The notes under the pieces were generated by a model, which worked only from the letters and a program-made list of their open reading frames with translations, was not told the origin of the DNA and ran no database searches. A stretch of 64,000 nt of DNA. It comes from Cellulomonas endophytica. GTDB taxonomy: Bacteria > Actinomycetota > Actinomycetes > Actinomycetales > Cellulomonadaceae. Below are positions 2,943 to 9,699 of the stretch, piece after piece. Where the stretch lies: NCBI RefSeq assembly GCF_004123805.1, contig NZ_RWJX01000003.1:1-64000 (forward strand). Reading direction: 5' to 3'. Each line of letters begins with the position of its first letter. Positions within the stretch are counted from its first letter, which is position 1. A program made the translations under genes and the position numbers.

Positions 2943-3881
2943 TCACACCACGTAGCGCTCCGGGGAGCCGGTCTCCGCGACCTCCCGGCGGAACTCCTCG
3001 ACGGTCCGCGTCCCGGGGGCCAGCGCCGGCTCGAGCACCGCGCGCAGCCGGGCGACGTCGCCGGGCGTGACCGCCGCCAGGTCGTCCCCGAGCGTCGCCC
3101 AGACGAGGTCCCCCGCCGGCCGCAGCCGGATGCCCGGGAGCGCACGCAGGGCCGCCTCGCCCCCGACGGCCCTCAGGTGCTCCGGTCCCAGGAGCGTGCC
3201 CCAGCCGTGCCCCCACAGGCGGCGCCGCAGGTCGCGACGCCCGGGCGAGCTGCCGACGACCCGCTCCCACGGGCTCTCGGCGTCGTCGGCGCGCACCCGG
3301 TCGAGCGTGACGAAGCCCGTGCCCGCCCCGAGCGTCGTGGCGGCGTCGAGCAGCCACGGCACGAGCCGGTCGGTCACGCGGACGAGGTCCGCGCCGCCCC
3401 CGTACATCGCCCAGCGCTGCACGTGGACGGCCACGGTCAGCCCGCCGACGGGCCCCGCCGCCGTCGGCACCGGCCACGCGGCGTGCACCTCGGCCACGGG
3501 TCGCTGCGGGTGCTCGGGGTGGTCGACGAGGGCCGTGGCCAGCGCTCCCGCCGTCATCGTGCGCAGAGGCGCCCCCGCCCCCCGCTCCGCCAGGAACGCC
3601 CAGTCCAGCCCGTCGCGGCCCGTGAGGCCCGGGCGCGGGTCGGCGAGGTCGTCCGCGACCGTCGTCGCCTGCACCCACCAGGTGAGGTCGACCCCGACGC
3701 AGGCGGCCACGACGTCCTCGACCGCCCGGCGCAGCACGTGGCGGACCGCGTCCGCCTCGGCGGGCGCCTCCGCCACGGCCACCCCGCCGAGGACGGCGGG
3801 CTCGCGCCCGCCCGGCACCGCCGGGCCGCCGACGGGCTCGTCGTCCCCCGGCCCGCCGTCCGAGCTGCCCGGTCCGCTCAC
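2943..3881 (-). CDS. DUF3396-like (type VI immunity family) protein, predicted immunity protein for the RHS toxin
   Basis: This 312-residue protein is predicted to be cytoplasmic: no signal peptide is visible. The block WGTLLGPEHLRAVGGEAAL followed by a GIRLRP strand near residue 240 is the hallmark of DUF3396, as is the closing region with VARLRAVLEPAL. The family contains known immunity proteins of nuclease effectors, for example partners of VRR-Nuc toxins. The GTG start at 3881 overlaps the TGA of the RHS gene, so the pair is translationally coupled, as expected for toxin and antidote. The N-terminal 30 residues are Gly/Pro-rich and poorly conserved in appearance. The family assignment is by motif memory, not alignment. 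The neutralising role is inferred from position. Confidence 0.8.
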   Translation of the reverse strand: MSGPGSSDGGPGDDEPVGGPAVPGGREPAVLGGVAVAEAPAEADAVRHVLRRAVEDVVAACVGVDLTWWVQATTVADDLADPRPGLTGRDGLDWAFLAERGAGAPLRTMTAGALATALVDHPEHPQRPVAEVHAAWPVPTAAGPVGGLTVAVHVQRWAMYGGGADLVRVTDRLVPWLLDAATTLGAGTGFVTLDRVRADDAESPWERVVGSSPGRRDLRRRLWGHGWGTLLGPEHLRAVGGEAALRALPGIRLRPAGDLVWATLGDDLAAVTPGDVARLRAVLEPALAPGTRTVEEFRREVAETGSPERYVV

Positions 3882-6800
3882 CAGAACGACGACCAGGCCT
3901 TGGACCACAGGGCCGCGCCGGAGCCGATGAGCGCCACCCCGCCGCCGATCGTCAGCGGGTCGTCGAGGATGCCGATGCCACCGGTCGCCACGTCCTCGAC
4001 GAGCGTGCCGCCGATGAGCAGGGTGCCGCCCGCGATGAGCAGCGTTCCGCCGGCCGCCTCCGTCGCGGGTCCGATCCAGCTCGGCGGCTCCCACGTCCAG
4101 TCCCGCGGTGCCGGCGCGGGGGCCGGCACGGGCACGGGGACCGGCACCGGGACGGGGACCGGCACCGGGACGGGGACCGGCACGGGGACCGGACGCGGCC
4201 CCGCCGAGGCCCGGTAGTAGTACCAGAGCATCCCCGCGTCGCCGTAGGACTGGACCACGAGCTGCCCGCGCTGGTACCCGAAGGCGTACTGCCCGTAGGC
4301 GGTGCCCGAGCGCCCGGGGCCGCCCGGCAGGTTCGCGACGTACCCGGCGAGCTGGGTGAGGGCGCGCTGCCGGAGCACCGGGTCCCCGTGCCAGCGGGCG
4401 GTCTTGACCTCCCACACCGACAGCCCGTCGACGAGGTCCGCCCGCCCGCCCGCGCCGTTGACGCCGGCGCCGGGCACCCAGACCTCCATGCGCGTGCCGG
4501 GCCGCTTGGCCGCGGCGAAGTGCACCTGGACGGCGCGGTGCTGCGCCGACCACTCCGTGATGTCCGGCGCCTGCGGGGTGGCGGCGGCGATGGTCGCGGC
4601 CAGGCCCGTCGAGGCGAGCGCTGCGTCGGACACCGGGCTCAGGCCCGTGGGGTCCACGAGGTCGAGCGGGTCGTTCGCGGCGTAGGCGTAGTCGTTCGTC
4701 GCCGCGGGGGTGCCCGGGGGCTGGGTGACGGGGTCCGGGGTGAGCATCTGGCCCGTGGCCGCGTCGTAGTCGCGCTCGAGCAGCTCGAGCGTGCCACCGA
4801 CGGTGAGCTCACCCCGGTACCCCAGCGTCGGGGTGAGCGTGAGGTCGGCGAGGTTGACAGGGTCGGTCGCCCCGCCGAAGGGGTCGTAGGAGGTGCTGGC
4901 GGCCACGTCGGCCGTCGGCAGCGTGGTCGTCACCGACCCCCACGCGTCCTTGGCGAGCACCGCCGTGCTGCCGTCGGCGCGCGACAGGCCCACCGGGCCC
5001 CGCAGGCCCTGGACGAACGCGGTCGTGCGGCCGCCCGTGGAGGTGCTCACGAGCTCGGGGAGACCGCCGCTGGCGTCCCATCCCAGCGTCGTGGCCACCG
5101 TGCGACCGCCGCGGGTGGCGGTGGTCCCGACGAGGAGCCCGTCGCCGTCGTGGGTGCGCGCGACGGTCGTCGTCACCGGCCCCACGACGACCGTCTGCGT
5201 GGCCGGCCGCCCGGCGGCGTCGTACGTCCACCGCTGCGCGGACAGGGGCGCGGTCGCGCTCACGCGACGCCCGGCGGCGTCGTAGGAGTACCGGGTGACG
5301 ACGCCGCGCGTGGTCTCCGTCGCCAGCCGGCCGGCGCCGTCGTACGCGGAGGCCGTGGCGACCCCGTCCGCCGTCGTGGCGGTGCGGTTCCCGCGGCGGT
5401 CGTACGTCCAGGTCCGGGTCCGCGGGGTCCGCGGGTCGAGGTCGGTGACCTGCGACGAGACGAGCTGCCCGGCGGCGTCGTAGCCGTAGGCGGCCGACCC
5501 GGTGCCGAGCCCGCCGCGGGTCGTGGTGCCGACGACCCGTCCGGCGGCGTCGCGGCGCGTCTGGACGGTCGTCGTCACCCCGGCGACGACCTGCGTCTGC
5601 GAGGCCTGGCGCCCGAGGGCGTCGTAGGTCCAGCTGCGCGACTGGCCGCGCGGCAGCGCCTCGGACGTGACGAGGCCGTCGGGGTCGAGGGTCCAGGAGA
5701 CCGTGCCCCACTCCGAGTGGACGGCACGGGTCGCGCGGCCGGCCGCGTCGCGCGTCCACTCCAGGACGCTCGCGTCGGGGAGGGTGGCCGTGCGGACCCG
5801 GCCCGCCGCGTCGAGCGTCCACGCCTGCGTGCCGCCGGGCCCGACCTGGCGGACGAGCCGGCCGGCCGCGTCGGAGGCGTAGGTCGTCGTGCCGCGGGCG
5901 TCCGTCATGGACGTGCGCAGGCCCGTGCGGTCGTAGCTGTAGGCCACGGCGGAGCCGTCGCCCCACGTGCGGGACAGCAGGCGGCCCATCGCGTCGTAGC
6001 CGCGGCGCTCCGTGCGGCCGGTCGCGTCGGTGACCGTCGTGACGCGGCCGAGGGCGTCGTAGGCGTACGCGGTGCGCGCCCCGGCCCGGTCGACGGTCTC
6101 CGTCAGCCGGCTCGCGGCGTCGTAGCGACGGGTCTCCCGGCCACCGGCCGCGTCCGTCACCGACGTGAGCAGCCCGCCGTCCCAGCCGTAGGCCGTGGCG
6201 GCCCCGAGCGGGTCCACCGCCCCGACGAGGCGGCCCGCCGCGTCGTAGGAGTAGGTCGAGCGCGCCCCCGTGGGTCCGGTGAGCTGCACGAGGGCACCGG
6301 CGGCGTCGAGCCCGCGCACCTCCGTGCTGCCGTCGGCCTGCGTCGTGCGGACGAGGCGGCCCGCGGCGTCGTAGGCGGAGCGCACCGTGCGACCCGCGGC
6401 GCTCGTCTCGGCGACGACGAGGCCGTCGCCGTCGTAGGCGGTGGTGCTGCGGCCGCCGACCGGGTCGACCGTGGCGACGTGCCGGCCCGCGGCGTCGTAG
6501 GCGTAGGTCGTCCGCGCCCCCGTGGCATCGGTGGCCACCGCGACGCGGCCCCCCGGTGTCCACGTCGTGCCGGTGGAGGCGCCCGTGGGGTCGGTCAGCG
6601 CGACCGGGCGGCCGACGGCGTCGTACGCGGCGACGGTCCGGCGGCCCTCCGCGTCCACGGAGGCGACGACCGCGCCGCGGGCGTCGTACTCGTACCGCTG
6701 CTCGCCGCCCGCCGCGTCGACGGTCGACGTCACCCGGCCCAGGGCGTCGACGGCCTGGCGCGTCGTCCGTCCGAGGGCGTCGACGACGGTCGCCACGCGG

Positions 6801-9232
6801 CCCTCGGCGTCGTAGGTGTAGGACGTGCGCGCGCCCGTCGGGTCGGTCACCGCCTCGACTCGGCCCAGGGCGCCGTAGGTCCAGGTGGTCGTCCCGCCCT
6901 GGGCGTCCGTCGTGGTGGCCACGCGGCCGGCCGCGTCGTAGGTCGTGCGGGCGACCTCGCCCGTGGGGTCCGTGGCGCTGACGAGCCGCCCGACCGCGTC
7001 GTAGGCGTAGGTCGTCGTGCCGCCCGTCGGGCTCGTCTCCGTCAGCAGCAGCCCGGACGGGTCGTACGTGGACGCGCGCGTGCCCGCCGCGTCCGTCACC
7101 GCGACGGTGCGCCCCGTCGCGTCGTACGTGAAGGACGTGCGGCGACCCTCCGGGGTCGTGATCCGCGTGAGGCGCCCCGCGCCGTCGCGGTCGTAGGCCG
7201 TGCGCCCGCCGAGGCCGTCCAGCTCGGCCACGACGTTGCCGGCGGCGTCGTGCTCGAGGACCACGCGCACGCCGTCGGGGTCGGTGACCGAGCGCACGAC
7301 GTCGCCCTGGACGTCCTGCCGGGTGACGCCGCCGTCCGCCGCCGTGATCGTCGAGGGGACGCGCTCGTCGCCCTCGTACCCGTGCACGGTCCGGGCGCCC
7401 GCGGCGTCCGTGTGCGCGACGAGGCGGCCCCTCTCGTCGTACTCCCACCGCTGCTCGCCGCCGAGCGCGTCGGTGGCGCTGAGCACGTGCCCGCGGTCGT
7501 CGTAGGTGACGCGGGTGGTGGCGGCGCCCCGGTCGGTGGCCGCGGCGAGGTTGCCGCCGGCGTCGTACTCGAGCAGGACCCGCTCGCCCGCGGTGTCGGT
7601 CAGCGTGGTCGGCCGCCCGCCCTCGTCGTGCTGGACCCGCGTCTCCTCGCCCGTGCGCAGGTCCCGGACCGTCGTGAGGCCCTCGAGGTCGTCGTAGGCC
7701 AGCTCGACGGCGCCGTCGGGCAGCTCCTGCCGCAGCACACGACCCAGGGAGTCGAACGTGTTCGTCATGAGCACGCGGCCGGCCGCGTCCGTGACGGTCG
7801 CGAGGTGGTCCTCGTCCCAGCCGTAGGACGTGGTGGCCCCGGCCGGGTCGGTCACGCCGACGAGGAGGTCGCCCTCGTGCGCGTAGGTCACGGTGCGGCC
7901 GTCCGAGGCGGTCGCACCCGTCACGCGACCGGCCCGACCCGCGAGGGTGAGGACCGCACCGGTGCTGCTGCGCACCGCCGTCGGGGTGCCGTCCGCCGCG
8001 CGCTCGAGGGTCAGCACCCCGCCGTCGGTCTCGTCGATGCGCGCGAGCCGCCCCTCCGCGTCGAACGACCAGGTCTCGCCGCCGTCCCAGCGCAGGCCCC
8101 AGCGCCCCTCGGCGGTGCGGGTCAGCTCGCCCGCGAACTCCTCGGGGCGGTCGAAGCCCGTCCCCGTGGGCACGAACGGCACCGTGCGGCCGTCCGCGTC
8201 CAGCATCTCCGCGCCGCCGCCGTCCGTACCCGTGACCGTGACGTCGAGCAGCGTCGTCCAGCCCGTGCCGAGGACGCCCGTGCGCCCGTCCCGGGAGTTG
8301 TAGGTGCGTGCGAGGTCGAAGCCCGCGCGCCCGCCGACGGCGTCGAGGTCCGTGGCCGGCAGGACGAGGTTGCCCGTCGCCGTGCTCACCGGGTCGCTGA
8401 CGTAGAACGACGAGGCCCGGACGCCGTTGAGCTCGTCGGCCGGGCGCGCCACGTGGTTCGGCGTGCCGTTGCTGATGGCGAAGACGTAGCGGCCGGGGAC
8501 GGAGGAGCCCCGGCTGCCCGAGGCGAGCGCCGTGGCGGCGCCGTCGAGGAAGGCGCCGTTCACGCCCGAGCCCGGGAAGGCGTAGGAGGTGTCCGCCGTG
8601 CCGGCGCCGCTGGAGAAGCCCGCGTGCGCCGAGCTGCCGCCCGTGCCCCCCGCCCCGCCCGAGGCGGACCCGGTCTCCCACTGGACGGCGTCGTACGCGA
8701 ACACGATGTCGAAGTCGGCGTCCCCGCGGTCGTCGCGCTCGACGAGGAGCAGCTGGAACGTGTTGAGCCTGTCGACCTGGTTCGGGAAGTACCCGACCCG
8801 CGGCCAGGTGACGCAGAACGCGTCGTGCCCGTCGTAGGTGGTGGTCCCGTACGTGACGACGCCCTCGCCGCCGCGGGTGTCCACGTCCGCGAAGAACGGC
8901 GCGATGATCGGACGCTCCGTCGCCACGAGCCCGAAGGGCGTGTACGTCGACAGCTGCTCGTCGAACGTGACGTTGCCGTTGTTGTTGACGAAGGCCTGCG
9001 AGTAGGCCTCCCCGTAGAAGTTCAGCTCGAACGGCAGGTCGACGACCGCGGAGGACCCGTCGTCGTTGCGCGGCAGCACCTGCTCGGCGCACCCCGCCAG
9101 GTCGAGCACGGCCCCGGGCAGCGCCTGCGCGGGGGCCGCCACGGCGACGCCTGCGGCGAGGGCGGTGGCCAGCGCGACCCCTCCCGCGACGAGACGCCGG
9201 GCGTGGTCGGTGACGGGGTGGGGCAGGCGCAC
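3878..9232 (-). CDS. Secreted RHS/YD-repeat polymorphic toxin with NIDO domain and PD-(D/E)XK-like nuclease tip
   Basis: The protein has 1784 residues from the GTG at 9232, which follows a GGGAGA ribosome-binding site and opens a Sec signal peptide (VRLPHP... to APAQALPGA). Next comes a nidogen-like domain at about 45-215 (FVNNNGNVTFD, APFFADVDTRG). A DUF6531-type entry with AFDP-like SDPVSTATGNLVLP follows near 275-320. About 1100 residues of YD repeats (YAYDAAGR variants) lead to an RHS core end (LLERDYDAATGQMLTPDP ... NDPLDLVDPTG) near 1527. The tip carries GRADLVDG with D1599 and WEVK with E1608 and K1610, a PD-(D/E)XK-like site. A Pro-Val tract at about 1680-1701 and a Gly-rich hydrophobic tail end the protein. 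A -10 TACGTT lies at 9281-9286. It probably acts in contact-dependent competition. The target (DNA or RNA) is inferred. Confidence 0.9.
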   Translation of the reverse strand: MRLPHPVTDHARRLVAGGVALATALAAGVAVAAPAQALPGAVLDLAGCAEQVLPRNDDGSSAVVDLPFELNFYGEAYSQAFVNNNGNVTFDEQLSTYTPFGLVATERPIIAPFFADVDTRGGEGVVTYGTTTYDGHDAFCVTWPRVGYFPNQVDRLNTFQLLLVERDDRGDADFDIVFAYDAVQWETGSASGGAGGTGGSSAHAGFSSGAGTADTSYAFPGSGVNGAFLDGAATALASGSRGSSVPGRYVFAISNGTPNHVARPADELNGVRASSFYVSDPVSTATGNLVLPATDLDAVGGRAGFDLARTYNSRDGRTGVLGTGWTTLLDVTVTGTDGGGAEMLDADGRTVPFVPTGTGFDRPEEFAGELTRTAEGRWGLRWDGGETWSFDAEGRLARIDETDGGVLTLERAADGTPTAVRSSTGAVLTLAGRAGRVTGATASDGRTVTYAHEGDLLVGVTDPAGATTSYGWDEDHLATVTDAAGRVLMTNTFDSLGRVLRQELPDGAVELAYDDLEGLTTVRDLRTGEETRVQHDEGGRPTTLTDTAGERVLLEYDAGGNLAAATDRGAATTRVTYDDRGHVLSATDALGGEQRWEYDERGRLVAHTDAAGARTVHGYEGDERVPSTITAADGGVTRQDVQGDVVRSVTDPDGVRVVLEHDAAGNVVAELDGLGGRTAYDRDGAGRLTRITTPEGRRTSFTYDATGRTVAVTDAAGTRASTYDPSGLLLTETSPTGGTTTYAYDAVGRLVSATDPTGEVARTTYDAAGRVATTTDAQGGTTTWTYGALGRVEAVTDPTGARTSYTYDAEGRVATVVDALGRTTRQAVDALGRVTSTVDAAGGEQRYEYDARGAVVASVDAEGRRTVAAYDAVGRPVALTDPTGASTGTTWTPGGRVAVATDATGARTTYAYDAAGRHVATVDPVGGRSTTAYDGDGLVVAETSAAGRTVRSAYDAAGRLVRTTQADGSTEVRGLDAAGALVQLTGPTGARSTYSYDAAGRLVGAVDPLGAATAYGWDGGLLTSVTDAAGGRETRRYDAASRLTETVDRAGARTAYAYDALGRVTTVTDATGRTERRGYDAMGRLLSRTWGDGSAVAYSYDRTGLRTSMTDARGTTTYASDAAGRLVRQVGPGGTQAWTLDAAGRVRTATLPDASVLEWTRDAAGRATRAVHSEWGTVSWTLDPDGLVTSEALPRGQSRSWTYDALGRQASQTQVVAGVTTTVQTRRDAAGRVVGTTTRGGLGTGSAAYGYDAAGQLVSSQVTDLDPRTPRTRTWTYDRRGNRTATTADGVATASAYDGAGRLATETTRGVVTRYSYDAAGRRVSATAPLSAQRWTYDAAGRPATQTVVVGPVTTTVARTHDGDGLLVGTTATRGGRTVATTLGWDASGGLPELVSTSTGGRTTAFVQGLRGPVGLSRADGSTAVLAKDAWGSVTTTLPTADVAASTSYDPFGGATDPVNLADLTLTPTLGYRGELTVGGTLELLERDYDAATGQMLTPDPVTQPPGTPAATNDYAYAANDPLDLVDPTGLSPVSDAALASTGLAATIAAATPQAPDITEWSAQHRAVQVHFAAAKRPGTRMEVWVPGAGVNGAGGRADLVDGLSVWEVKTARWHGDPVLRQRALTQLAGYVANLPGGPGRSGTAYGQYAFGYQRGQLVVQSYGDAGMLWYYYRASAGPRPVPVPVPVPVPVPVPVPVPVPVPAPAPAPRDWTWEPPSWIGPATEAAGGTLLIAGGTLLIGGTLVEDVATGGIGILDDPLTIGGGVALIGSGAALWSKAWSSFW
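4123..4192 (-). repeat. In-frame short tandem repeat encoding a Pro-Val linker
   Basis: An 18-base unit rich in GGGACC/GGCACC, with two exact copies at 4141-4158 and 4159-4176 and several degenerate partial copies, encodes an uninterrupted run of Pro-Val dipeptides between the nuclease-like domain and the hydrophobic tail of the RHS toxin. The unit length is a multiple of three, so slippage would change linker length without breaking the frame. Confidence 0.85.
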
Positions 9233-9439: not shown

Positions 9440-9512
9440 GGGCCTCTAGCTCAACCGGCAGAGCAGCGGACTTTTAATCCGCGGGTTGTGGGTTCGATCC
9501 CCACGGGGCCCA
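9440..9512 (+). tRNA. tRNA-Lys (anticodon TTT)
   Basis: A full cloverleaf is visible. The acceptor stem GGGCCTC pairs with GGGGCCC (one G-T pair). The D arm is GCTC...GAGC, the anticodon loop CTTTTAA gives TTT, and the T arm is GTGGG-TTCGATC-CCCAC. The discriminator is A at 9512, and CCA is not encoded. No second tRNA is adjacent, and no integrase or direct repeat marking an integration site is seen on either side. Confidence 0.96.
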
Positions 9513-9699
9513 CCGTCGTCCAGCACCACCCGGACCCTCCCGCCCGCAGCAGCGCTTGACGCGGCACCGGCCCACCGGCACGATGACGACGCCCACCCTT
9601 ACGACGTCGTAAACGTGCCGCCACCTGCACCACCGTCTCCGCCGGCCCCGTGCCGCCGCGGCGGTCCCGCGCGCCGCGGCACGGATCGGGAGACCCACC

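What the first reader, a model, noticed from the sequence alone, without database searches (positions are those of the whole stretch)
2943..9232. Secreted RHS toxin translationally coupled to a DUF3396 immunity gene in an actinomycete
The RHS gene ends in a PD-(D/E)XK-like tip (D1599, E1608-x-K1610). Its TGA overlaps the GTG of a gene with the DUF3396 motif block. DUF3396 proteins are known antidotes of nuclease effectors mostly from type VI systems of Gram-negative bacteria. Here the carrier has a Sec signal peptide and a NIDO domain, and no secretion-system genes are nearby, so the same toxin/antidote logic appears to be used with a surface-displayed or secreted actinobacterial RHS shell.
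Basis: partly seen in the sequence, partly recalled or inferred. Interest (0 to 1): 0.72.

Follow-up and report, generated by a model that had tools for sequence, protein, structure and literature searches.

The report
Exported RHS nuclease toxin with antidote
A soil actinomycete carries a large exported shell protein whose end looks like a DNA-cutting toxin, followed directly by a gene for an antidote built like those known from Gram-negative injection-system toxins; the logic is known, the host and the wrapping are new.

Summary
A 1784-aa RHS gene (9232..3878, -) with signal peptide, NIDO domain and RHS shell carries a ~147-aa tip, D1599 and E1608-x-K1610 where stated. Its TGA overlaps the GTG of a 312-aa gene (3881..2943) by 4 nt. 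The tip is rare (4 of 221 family genomes, 1 found outside); all 5 copies have a relative of the 312-aa gene directly downstream, although flanks mostly differ. That protein matches TsiV (PF11876, ex-DUF3396) below the curated cut-off (18.4 vs 25 bits), but its predicted fold matches solved TsiV (PA0821, Z 14.1) best; TsiT follows (Z 10.6). Both are antidotes of PD-(D/E)XK nuclease effectors. The tip matches no library family and its model failed (pLDDT 37), so the nuclease reading rests on an invariant E-D-ExK-Q-Y pattern and the antidote's fold. Sec-exported RHS and REase-fold toxins in actinobacteria were already described; the TsiV-like antidote there is the new element. Toxicity and delivery are untested.

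The parts
3878..9232 (-). RHS carrier/toxin gene, 1784 aa, GTG start
9122..9232 (-). signal peptide, residues 1-37 (AQA|LPG by inspection)
   Evidence: hydropathy 2.14 at residues 14-32; cleavage site by eye
8471..8998 (-). NIDO domain, residues 79-254
   Evidence: PF06119 5.2e-30
8174..8395 (-). DUF6531, residues 280-353, entry to the RHS shell
   Evidence: PF20148 4.1e-18
4640..8173 (-). RHS/YD repeat shell up to the Rhs core end (core at 4640-4888)
   Evidence: PF05593 3.9e-142; TIGR03696 1.1e-10
4640..4735 (-). aspartyl-protease-like end of the shell, D1500 ... D1527PTGL, spacing 23
   Evidence: both Asp in 5 of 5 relatives; motif described in PMC10684867
4199..4645 (-). tip, residues 1530-1678, predicted PD-(D/E)XK nuclease: E1560, D1599, E1608, K1610, Q1627, Y1631
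   Evidence: invariant in 5 of 5 relatives; no library family
4106..4198 (-). Pro-Val linker, residues about 1679-1709
3881..4105 (-). hydrophobic tail, residues 1710-1784 (GGTLVEDVATGGIGILDD)
   Evidence: a relative's tail is 51% identical over 41 aa to a protein of a Rhizobium plasmid
3878..3881 (-). GTGA overlap of toxin stop and antidote start
2943..3881 (-). TsiV-like antidote gene, 312 aa
3141..3242 (-). LWGxGWGTLLxxxHLxxVGG block, the part that matches PF11876

Best explanation
A competition toxin of the RHS kind with its antidote. Shown: gene order, domain order, conserved residues, linkage, antidote fold (by prediction). Inferred: the protein is exported by Sec; the NIDO domain and the RHS barrel form the outside part; the barrel's end (D1500, D1527) cuts the chain before the tip, which stays inside the barrel until delivery; the tip enters neighbouring cells and cuts DNA with D1599/E1608/K1610 and a metal ion; the 312-aa protein stays in the cytosol, is made by re-initiation at the overlapping GTG, and binds the tip over its DNA-binding face as TsiV3 does to TseV3. 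The Pro-Val linker and hydrophobic tail behind the tip most likely touch a membrane, either holding the protein on the producer's surface or helping the tip through the target's membrane.
For: Tip in 4 of 221 family genomes and in one genome of another family, with the antidote relative directly downstream in 5 of 5, while flanks of up to 6 kb are alike at DNA level in one of the ten pairs of loci (L019/L020), apart from short pieces (81 and 220 nt in all) between L045 and the window. E31, D70, E79-x-K81, Q98, Y102 (tip numbering) invariant in all 5 at 43-87% pairwise identity. The antidote model (pLDDT 61, pTM 0.65) has PA0821 (7drg, 3.4e-8) and BPSL2088 (4rho, 1.8e-5) as its only PDB entries at E <= 0.001; second look Z 14.1 and 12.6, then TsiT entries at 10.6, 10.6 and 10.1. 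10 of 11 proteins scanned (P0002 among them) hit PF11876 at E <= 1, best 1.7e-5. TsiV3 blocks the DNA-binding site of its PD-(D/E)XK effector (PMC9635880, abstract, section 7 and passages). Orphan relatives of the antidote in four tip-free genomes.
Against: The tip has no library match, and its model is unusable. The PF11876 match is below the cut-off; the fold rests on a medium-confidence model from 4 sequences, and the TsiT rows (10.1-10.6) are within 1 Z unit of an unrelated 103-residue domain match (9.8), though they align twice as many residues. No swap of tips was seen: the NIDO-RHS shell was found only with this tip, and none of the nine other NIDO stretches I fetched (of 27 listed) holds an RHS shell, unlike typical polymorphic toxins. 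Divergence does not rise evenly towards the antidote: identity to the window is 80/80/66/71% for NIDO, 59/59/54/54 for the RHS repeats, 70/70/50/54 for the tip and 54/54/43/36 for the antidote. A tail behind the tip is atypical (recalled). The own genome holds only this one RHS gene. Nothing tested at the bench.
Confidence: 0.77

Rival explanations
1. The same toxin/antidote pair, but the tip is not a DNase: an RNase, or another enzyme on a different fold, with E/D/K conservation being structural.
For: No PD-(D/E)XK, VRR-Nuc or Tox-REase family match in Pfam or NCBIfam; structure prediction failed; the nearest profile match outside the group is marginal (E 0.003 per genome in a sample of 296).
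Against: The E...D...ExK...Q...Y order is that listed for REase-fold toxins (Tox-REase-1: E, D, ExK, Q; Tox-REase-6: E, D, ExK, Q, Y; PMC3482391, passage); the marginal match aligns D, E, K and Q with the N-terminal region of a protein with an N6-methylase domain; the antidote has the fold of an antidote of a PD-(D/E)XK effector.
Confidence: 0.15
2. The RHS protein is a surface or wall protein (adhesion, wall structure) whose C-terminal half is an anchor; the tip is not a toxin and the downstream gene is a chance or maturation partner.
For: (PV)n linker plus hydrophobic tail look like a wall-spanning anchor; the tail recurs in a Rhizobium protein with a LysM-like start; NIDO occurs in non-RHS proteins of the family.
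Against: 5 of 5 linkage to a relative of a TsiV-fold protein; catalytic-type residues invariant; orphan copies of the downstream gene in tip-free relatives, expected of antidotes, not of maturation partners.
Confidence: 0.07
3. The pair works inside the cell, as a toxin-antitoxin module or against phage.
For: Overlapping genes in 2 of 5; no strongly hydrophobic stretch in the antidote, so it is probably cytosolic; RHS elements acting as toxin-antitoxin modules have been reported (PMC7043789, title and start of abstract in a listing).
Against: Hydrophobic signal-peptide-like N-terminal stretch in 5 of 5; no PADLOC match.
Confidence: 0.05

Closest known systems
TseV/TsiV (VRR-Nuc effector with DUF3396 antidote, Salmonella bongori SPI-22 T6SS, PMC9635880; P. 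aeruginosa PA0822/PA0821)
   Same: Antidote fold (PA0821, Z 14.1); order toxin then antidote; D/E/K-type catalytic set.
   Different: No PAAR domain found in the protein; RHS/NIDO shell with signal peptide; tip does not match VRR-Nuc; antidote only 12% identical to PA0821 in the structural alignment.
TseT/TsiT (Tox-REase-5, recalled, with Imm52; P. aeruginosa PA3907/PA3908)
   Same: Antidote fold (7dym, 9oz0 Z 10.6; 6jdp Z 10.1); TseT is counted to the PD-(D/E)xK superfamily in PMC9635880.
   Different: No Tox-REase-5 or Imm52 family match; T6SS delivery.
WapA of Streptococcus suis (PMC12704120, abstract and outline) and of Bacillus subtilis (recalled)
   Same: Sec-exported RHS toxin of a Gram-positive with self-cleavage and a C-terminal toxin.
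   Different: Other N-terminal wall-binding region, sortase link, diverse tips; here NIDO instead, one tip only, tail behind the tip.
Sec-exported RHS polymorphic toxins and Tox-REase tips in actinobacteria (PMC3482391, tables in passages)
   Same: Export route, RHS repeats, residue pattern of Tox-REase-1/6.
   Different: Antidotes listed there for Tox-REase-1 and -6 are Imm49 and Imm-PA2201; Imm52 is listed for proteobacteria and tailed phages only; DUF3396 does not occur in the part of the text held.

Membership tests
TsiV (PF11876, formerly DUF3396) | score over the curated cut-off (25 bits) | tested here: not met
   18.4 bits, E 0.0015, residues 214-247 only; in 236 class genomes 0 over the cut-off, and 0 of the 14 control genomes over it either
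TsiV (PF11876, formerly DUF3396) | TsiV fold | tested here: met
   7drg PA0821 E 3.4e-8, prob 1.00, Z 14.1 over 257 residues, rmsd 5.3; model only pLDDT 61
TsiV (PF11876, formerly DUF3396) | encoded next to the toxin it neutralises | tested here: met
   5 of 5 tips followed by a relative; the toxin role of the tip is itself predicted
TsiV (PF11876, formerly DUF3396) | binds and neutralises the effector | not testable with these tools
   needs expression; no complex prediction was made
RHS toxins | YD repeats and Rhs core | tested here: met
   PF05593 3.9e-142, TIGR03696 41.8 of 32.5 bits
RHS toxins | DPxG-x18-DPxG protease motif | tested here: inconclusive
   both Asp in 5 of 5, but first Gly lost and spacing 23
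Polymorphic toxins | same shell with swapped tips | tested here: not met
   the NIDO-RHS shell was seen only with this tip: 4 family genomes and G266; 18 of 27 other NIDO places were not looked at
PD-(D/E)XK superfamily | E, D, (D/E)xK, Q in order | tested here: met
   invariant in 5 of 5
PD-(D/E)XK superfamily | alpha/beta core fold | tested here: inconclusive
   model pLDDT 37.3, unusable
VRR-Nuc (PF08774) and Tox-REase families of Pfam | profile match | tested here: not met
   none up to E 10 for four tips and none up to E 1 for the fifth
T6SS cargo effectors | PAAR or other T6SS loading domain in the protein | tested here: not met
   none in P0001; the genome was not searched for T6SS genes

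The most novel reading that the evidence does not exclude
A surface-held nuclease weapon of a new layout: the nuclease sits between the RHS barrel and a Pro-Val spacer with a membrane hairpin, so that self-cleavage leaves a nuclease-spacer-hairpin piece whose hairpin carries the nuclease through the target's membrane without any injection machine; and a TsiV-type antidote family, in the papers found only with Gram-negative T6SS toxins, has spread in actinomycetes as linked, orphan and fused forms that protect toxin-free relatives.
Probability: 0.2. Interest if true: 0.65.

Novelty: new variant of a known kind. Interest (0 to 1): 0.45.

Why it matters
It extends a known antidote fold from injected Gram-negative effectors to a carrier that looks Sec-exported in a Gram-positive, offers a small self-contained pair for asking how RHS toxins cross into a cell without an injection machine, and shows orphan antidotes in toxin-free relatives. 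A search for DUF3396 in the held library gives 5 papers, each with the type VI system in its title (listing only).

Tried and rejected
Genome-contig scan with the antidote alone: 189 pattern matches, no relative; with the tip alignment: 71 pattern matches, 3 relatives, all Cellulomonas and already known. Plasmids: no antidote relative; six tip matches at E 4-5, not followed; two tail matches, one followed, the other, at E 3, lies in an unrelated membrane protein. Viral contigs: no tip relative among 16 pattern matches. PDB sequence searches: none for the antidote, chance matches for the tip (low complexity, antibodies, prothrombin). BFVD: no hit at E <= 0.001 for the antidote. PADLOC: none. 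PHROGs: chance-level only for the tip. Weak Pfam and NCBIfam matches of tips taken as chance: Gln-synt_C 0.11, DUF4982 0.0052 for the G266 tip, below its cut-off, DusC 0.048. Tip model pLDDT 37, so no fold search was run with it. The four weak tip-profile matches in the phylum sample: one in the N-terminal region of a methylase-domain protein with D, E, K and Q aligned (weak MmeI_N match E 0.24); the others lie in a frame antisense to an M23-like peptidase gene, a lipoyl-synthase-like frame and an unconvincing G+C-rich frame, taken as chance. PF11876 hit L109 (G371) is a FlhF-like protein, taken as chance; L108 (G259) is a lone TsiV-like gene. The names M23, lipoyl synthase and FlhF are recalled, not scanned. 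Island signs: G+C of the pair is within 1.1 points of its flanks in all 5 loci; no tRNA in the stretches of the other four loci, so tRNA-Lys at 9440-9514 is probably chance. The solved TseV3:TsiV3 complex did not appear among the listed structures, which says nothing.

Full report
WHAT IS THERE. The RHS gene runs 9232..3878 (-), 1784 aa, the partner 3881..2943, 312 aa, sharing GTGA. Domain order: signal peptide (by eye and hydropathy), NIDO 79-254, DUF6531 280-353, RHS repeats, Rhs core 1449-1531, tip 1530-1678, (PV)n linker to about 1709, hydrophobic tail to 1784.

LINKAGE. The tip was found in 4 of 221 genomes of the family (own, G064, G101, G079) and, among 394 genomes drawn from the class, in the own genome and G266. 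The named counterparts of G064, G101 and G079 are Cellulomonas sp. Root930, C. xylanilytica NBRC 101102 and Cellulomonas sp. JH27-2 (tips and antidotes identical letter for letter). All 5 copies sit near the end of a 1781-1816 aa RHS protein with a NIDO-type N-terminal region, and all 5 are followed by a relative of P0002: overlap of 4 nt in the window and G079, gaps of 13, 31 and 40 nt in G064, G101 and G266. Flanks of up to 6 kb (2.9 kb on one side of the window) are similar at DNA level between G064 and G101; otherwise only pieces of 81 and 220 nt in all were found, between G266 and the window. Where genes overlap I see no clear ribosome-binding site before the GTG, and where there is a gap a G-rich stretch stands before the ATG (by eye); this fits translational coupling but was not tested.

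THE ANTIDOTE. P0002 hits TsiV (PF11876) with 18.4 bits against a cut-off of 25, over 34 residues; a first search of the own genome at E <= 0.001 had found nothing. Of 11 proteins scanned, P0002 among them, 10 hit it at E <= 1, best 1.7e-5; the relative in G266 gives 0.069, that in G644 none up to E 1. A model from 4 sequences (pLDDT 61, pTM 0.65) finds PA0821 (E 3.4e-8) and BPSL2088 (1.8e-5) as the only PDB entries under 0.001. VIA-align ranks PA0821 Z 14.1 (257 residues, 5.3 A), BPSL2088 12.6 (205, 4.3 A), entries of TsiT 10.6, 10.6 and 10.1 (198-207 residues), then a domain of spermine synthase at 9.8 over 103 residues; by Z the TsiT rows and the last are tied, and only the aligned length sets them apart. 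PA0821 is named as an immunity protein and as TsiV3's nearest structure in PMC9635880 (passage). I therefore call P0002 TsiV-like by fold, not a member of PF11876 by its cut-off. The role of BPSL2088 is unknown to me.

THE TIP. No family in Pfam, NCBIfam, PADLOC or PHROGs matches it convincingly. Forty-six columns are invariant among the 5 tips, among them E31, D70, E79, K81, Q98 and Y102, the order given for REase-fold toxins (PMC3482391, passages). The structure model is useless (pLDDT 37). Of four weak matches (E 0.003-0.007 per genome) to the tip profile in the 295 other genomes of the phylum sample, one lies in the N-terminal region of a protein with an N6-methylase domain and aligns D, E, K and Q; with that many genomes a match of this strength is expected about once by chance. 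I put the PD-(D/E)XK fold at about 0.75.

THE SHELL. Both aspartates of the RHS protease motif are present in 5 of 5, with spacing 23 instead of 18 and without the first Gly (the motif and its role from PMC10684867, passages). A search with the NIDO end found 30 of 221 genomes at 1e-10, 31 places: the 4 RHS loci and 27 others. I fetched nine of the 27 (the six strongest and three weaker ones); none holds a stretch similar to the RHS shell at E 1e-3, and some end in RCC1-like repeats (name recalled). Eighteen, at E 4e-18 or weaker, were not looked at. Thus this shell shows one tip only, and the swapping that defines polymorphic toxins was not seen. Identity to the window over the four relatives is 80/80/66/71% for NIDO, 59/59/54/54 for the RHS repeats, 70/70/50/54 for the tip and 54/54/43/36 for the antidote: the antidote varies most, while the tip and the repeats do not rank the same way in every pair.

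THE TAIL. After the tip come a Pro-Val linker (4 of 5 with a long run, shorter and mixed in G079) and a hydrophobic stretch of mean hydropathy 1.65-2.59, in 4 of 5 with GTLxEDVxTxGxGIxDD. A similar motif ends a protein with a LysM-like start on a Rhizobium plasmid (51% over 41 aa, E 2e-3; LysM recalled). This favours a membrane or envelope role of the tail over a toxic one; which membrane is open.

ORPHANS AND FUSIONS. The antidote search found 14 places in 12 of 221 genomes: 4 beside an RHS tip; 4 alone (L021, L022 on a 9.8-kb contig, L028, and L024 with two in-frame stops); 5 with an extra C-terminal domain (L023, L025, L027, L029, L031) and a sixth, L030, where that part appears out of frame (by eye). 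None of the ten non-RHS stretches holds an RHS shell, and none of the genomes of L021, L022, L024 and L028 shows a tip. In a tree of 17 proteins the orphan L021 pairs with the window's copy (97/96) and L022 with that of G064 (83/65, weak); the six fused ones form one group (100/99). An order-wide sample of 396 genomes (6 with matches) added relatives in G853 and G644, without an RHS shell beside them. Orphan antidotes in toxin-free relatives are what one expects if the toxin is used between bacteria.

HOW IT COMPARES. Toxin/antidote logic, RHS shell, Sec export and REase tips in actinobacteria are known (PMC3482391, tables seen in passages); Sec-exported, self-cleaving WapA toxins are shown in S. 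suis (PMC12704120, abstract and outline). New here are a TsiV-like antidote in actinomycetes (PF11876: 3 of 236 class genomes at E <= 0.01, none over the cut-off; of 14 control genomes one, Caulobacter, below the cut-off, so the search had no control above it; DUF3396 in 5 papers of the held library, none on actinomycetes by title and start of abstract), a tip outside the library families searched, NIDO at the front and the tail behind. A search for at least three of Cellulomonas, Rhs, toxin and immunity held 813 papers, of which I saw 10 in the listing, none on this system by title and start of abstract. Verdict: real, a new variant of a known kind, moderate interest.

Noticed in passing
L023, L025, L027, L029, L031 (and L030, out of frame): TsiV-like domain fused to an unlisted C-terminal domain of about 150-190 aa (GPVGFT ... 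GPTLRTAL ... GHAVGPxREDERVTVD ... PDELR ... WxVWWD); one copy scanned, no Pfam match; no RHS shell in the stretches; L029 carries the domain twice by eye.
   Followed up: partly
L021 (after a proB-like gene), L022, L028, L046, L047, L108: Lone TsiV-like genes without an RHS shell in the stretch; L021 is the nearest relative of the window's antidote in the tree (L108 not in the tree).
   Followed up: partly
L103:4002-5186: Rhizobium plasmid protein with a LysM-like start ends in a hydrophobic EDxxxGGxGxxDD tail like that of the RHS proteins.
   Followed up: partly
window 4106-4198: Pro-Val linker encoded by an in-frame 6/12/18-bp repeat that could change length by slippage.
   Followed up: no
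L101, L102 (contigs C144, C117 of the own genome): Two WXG100 matches over the cut-off, one in a 611-aa open frame, on other contigs than the RHS gene.
   Followed up: no
L078-L083: The NIDO end of the carrier recurs in six proteins of the family without RHS shell, 49-56% identical.
   Followed up: partly
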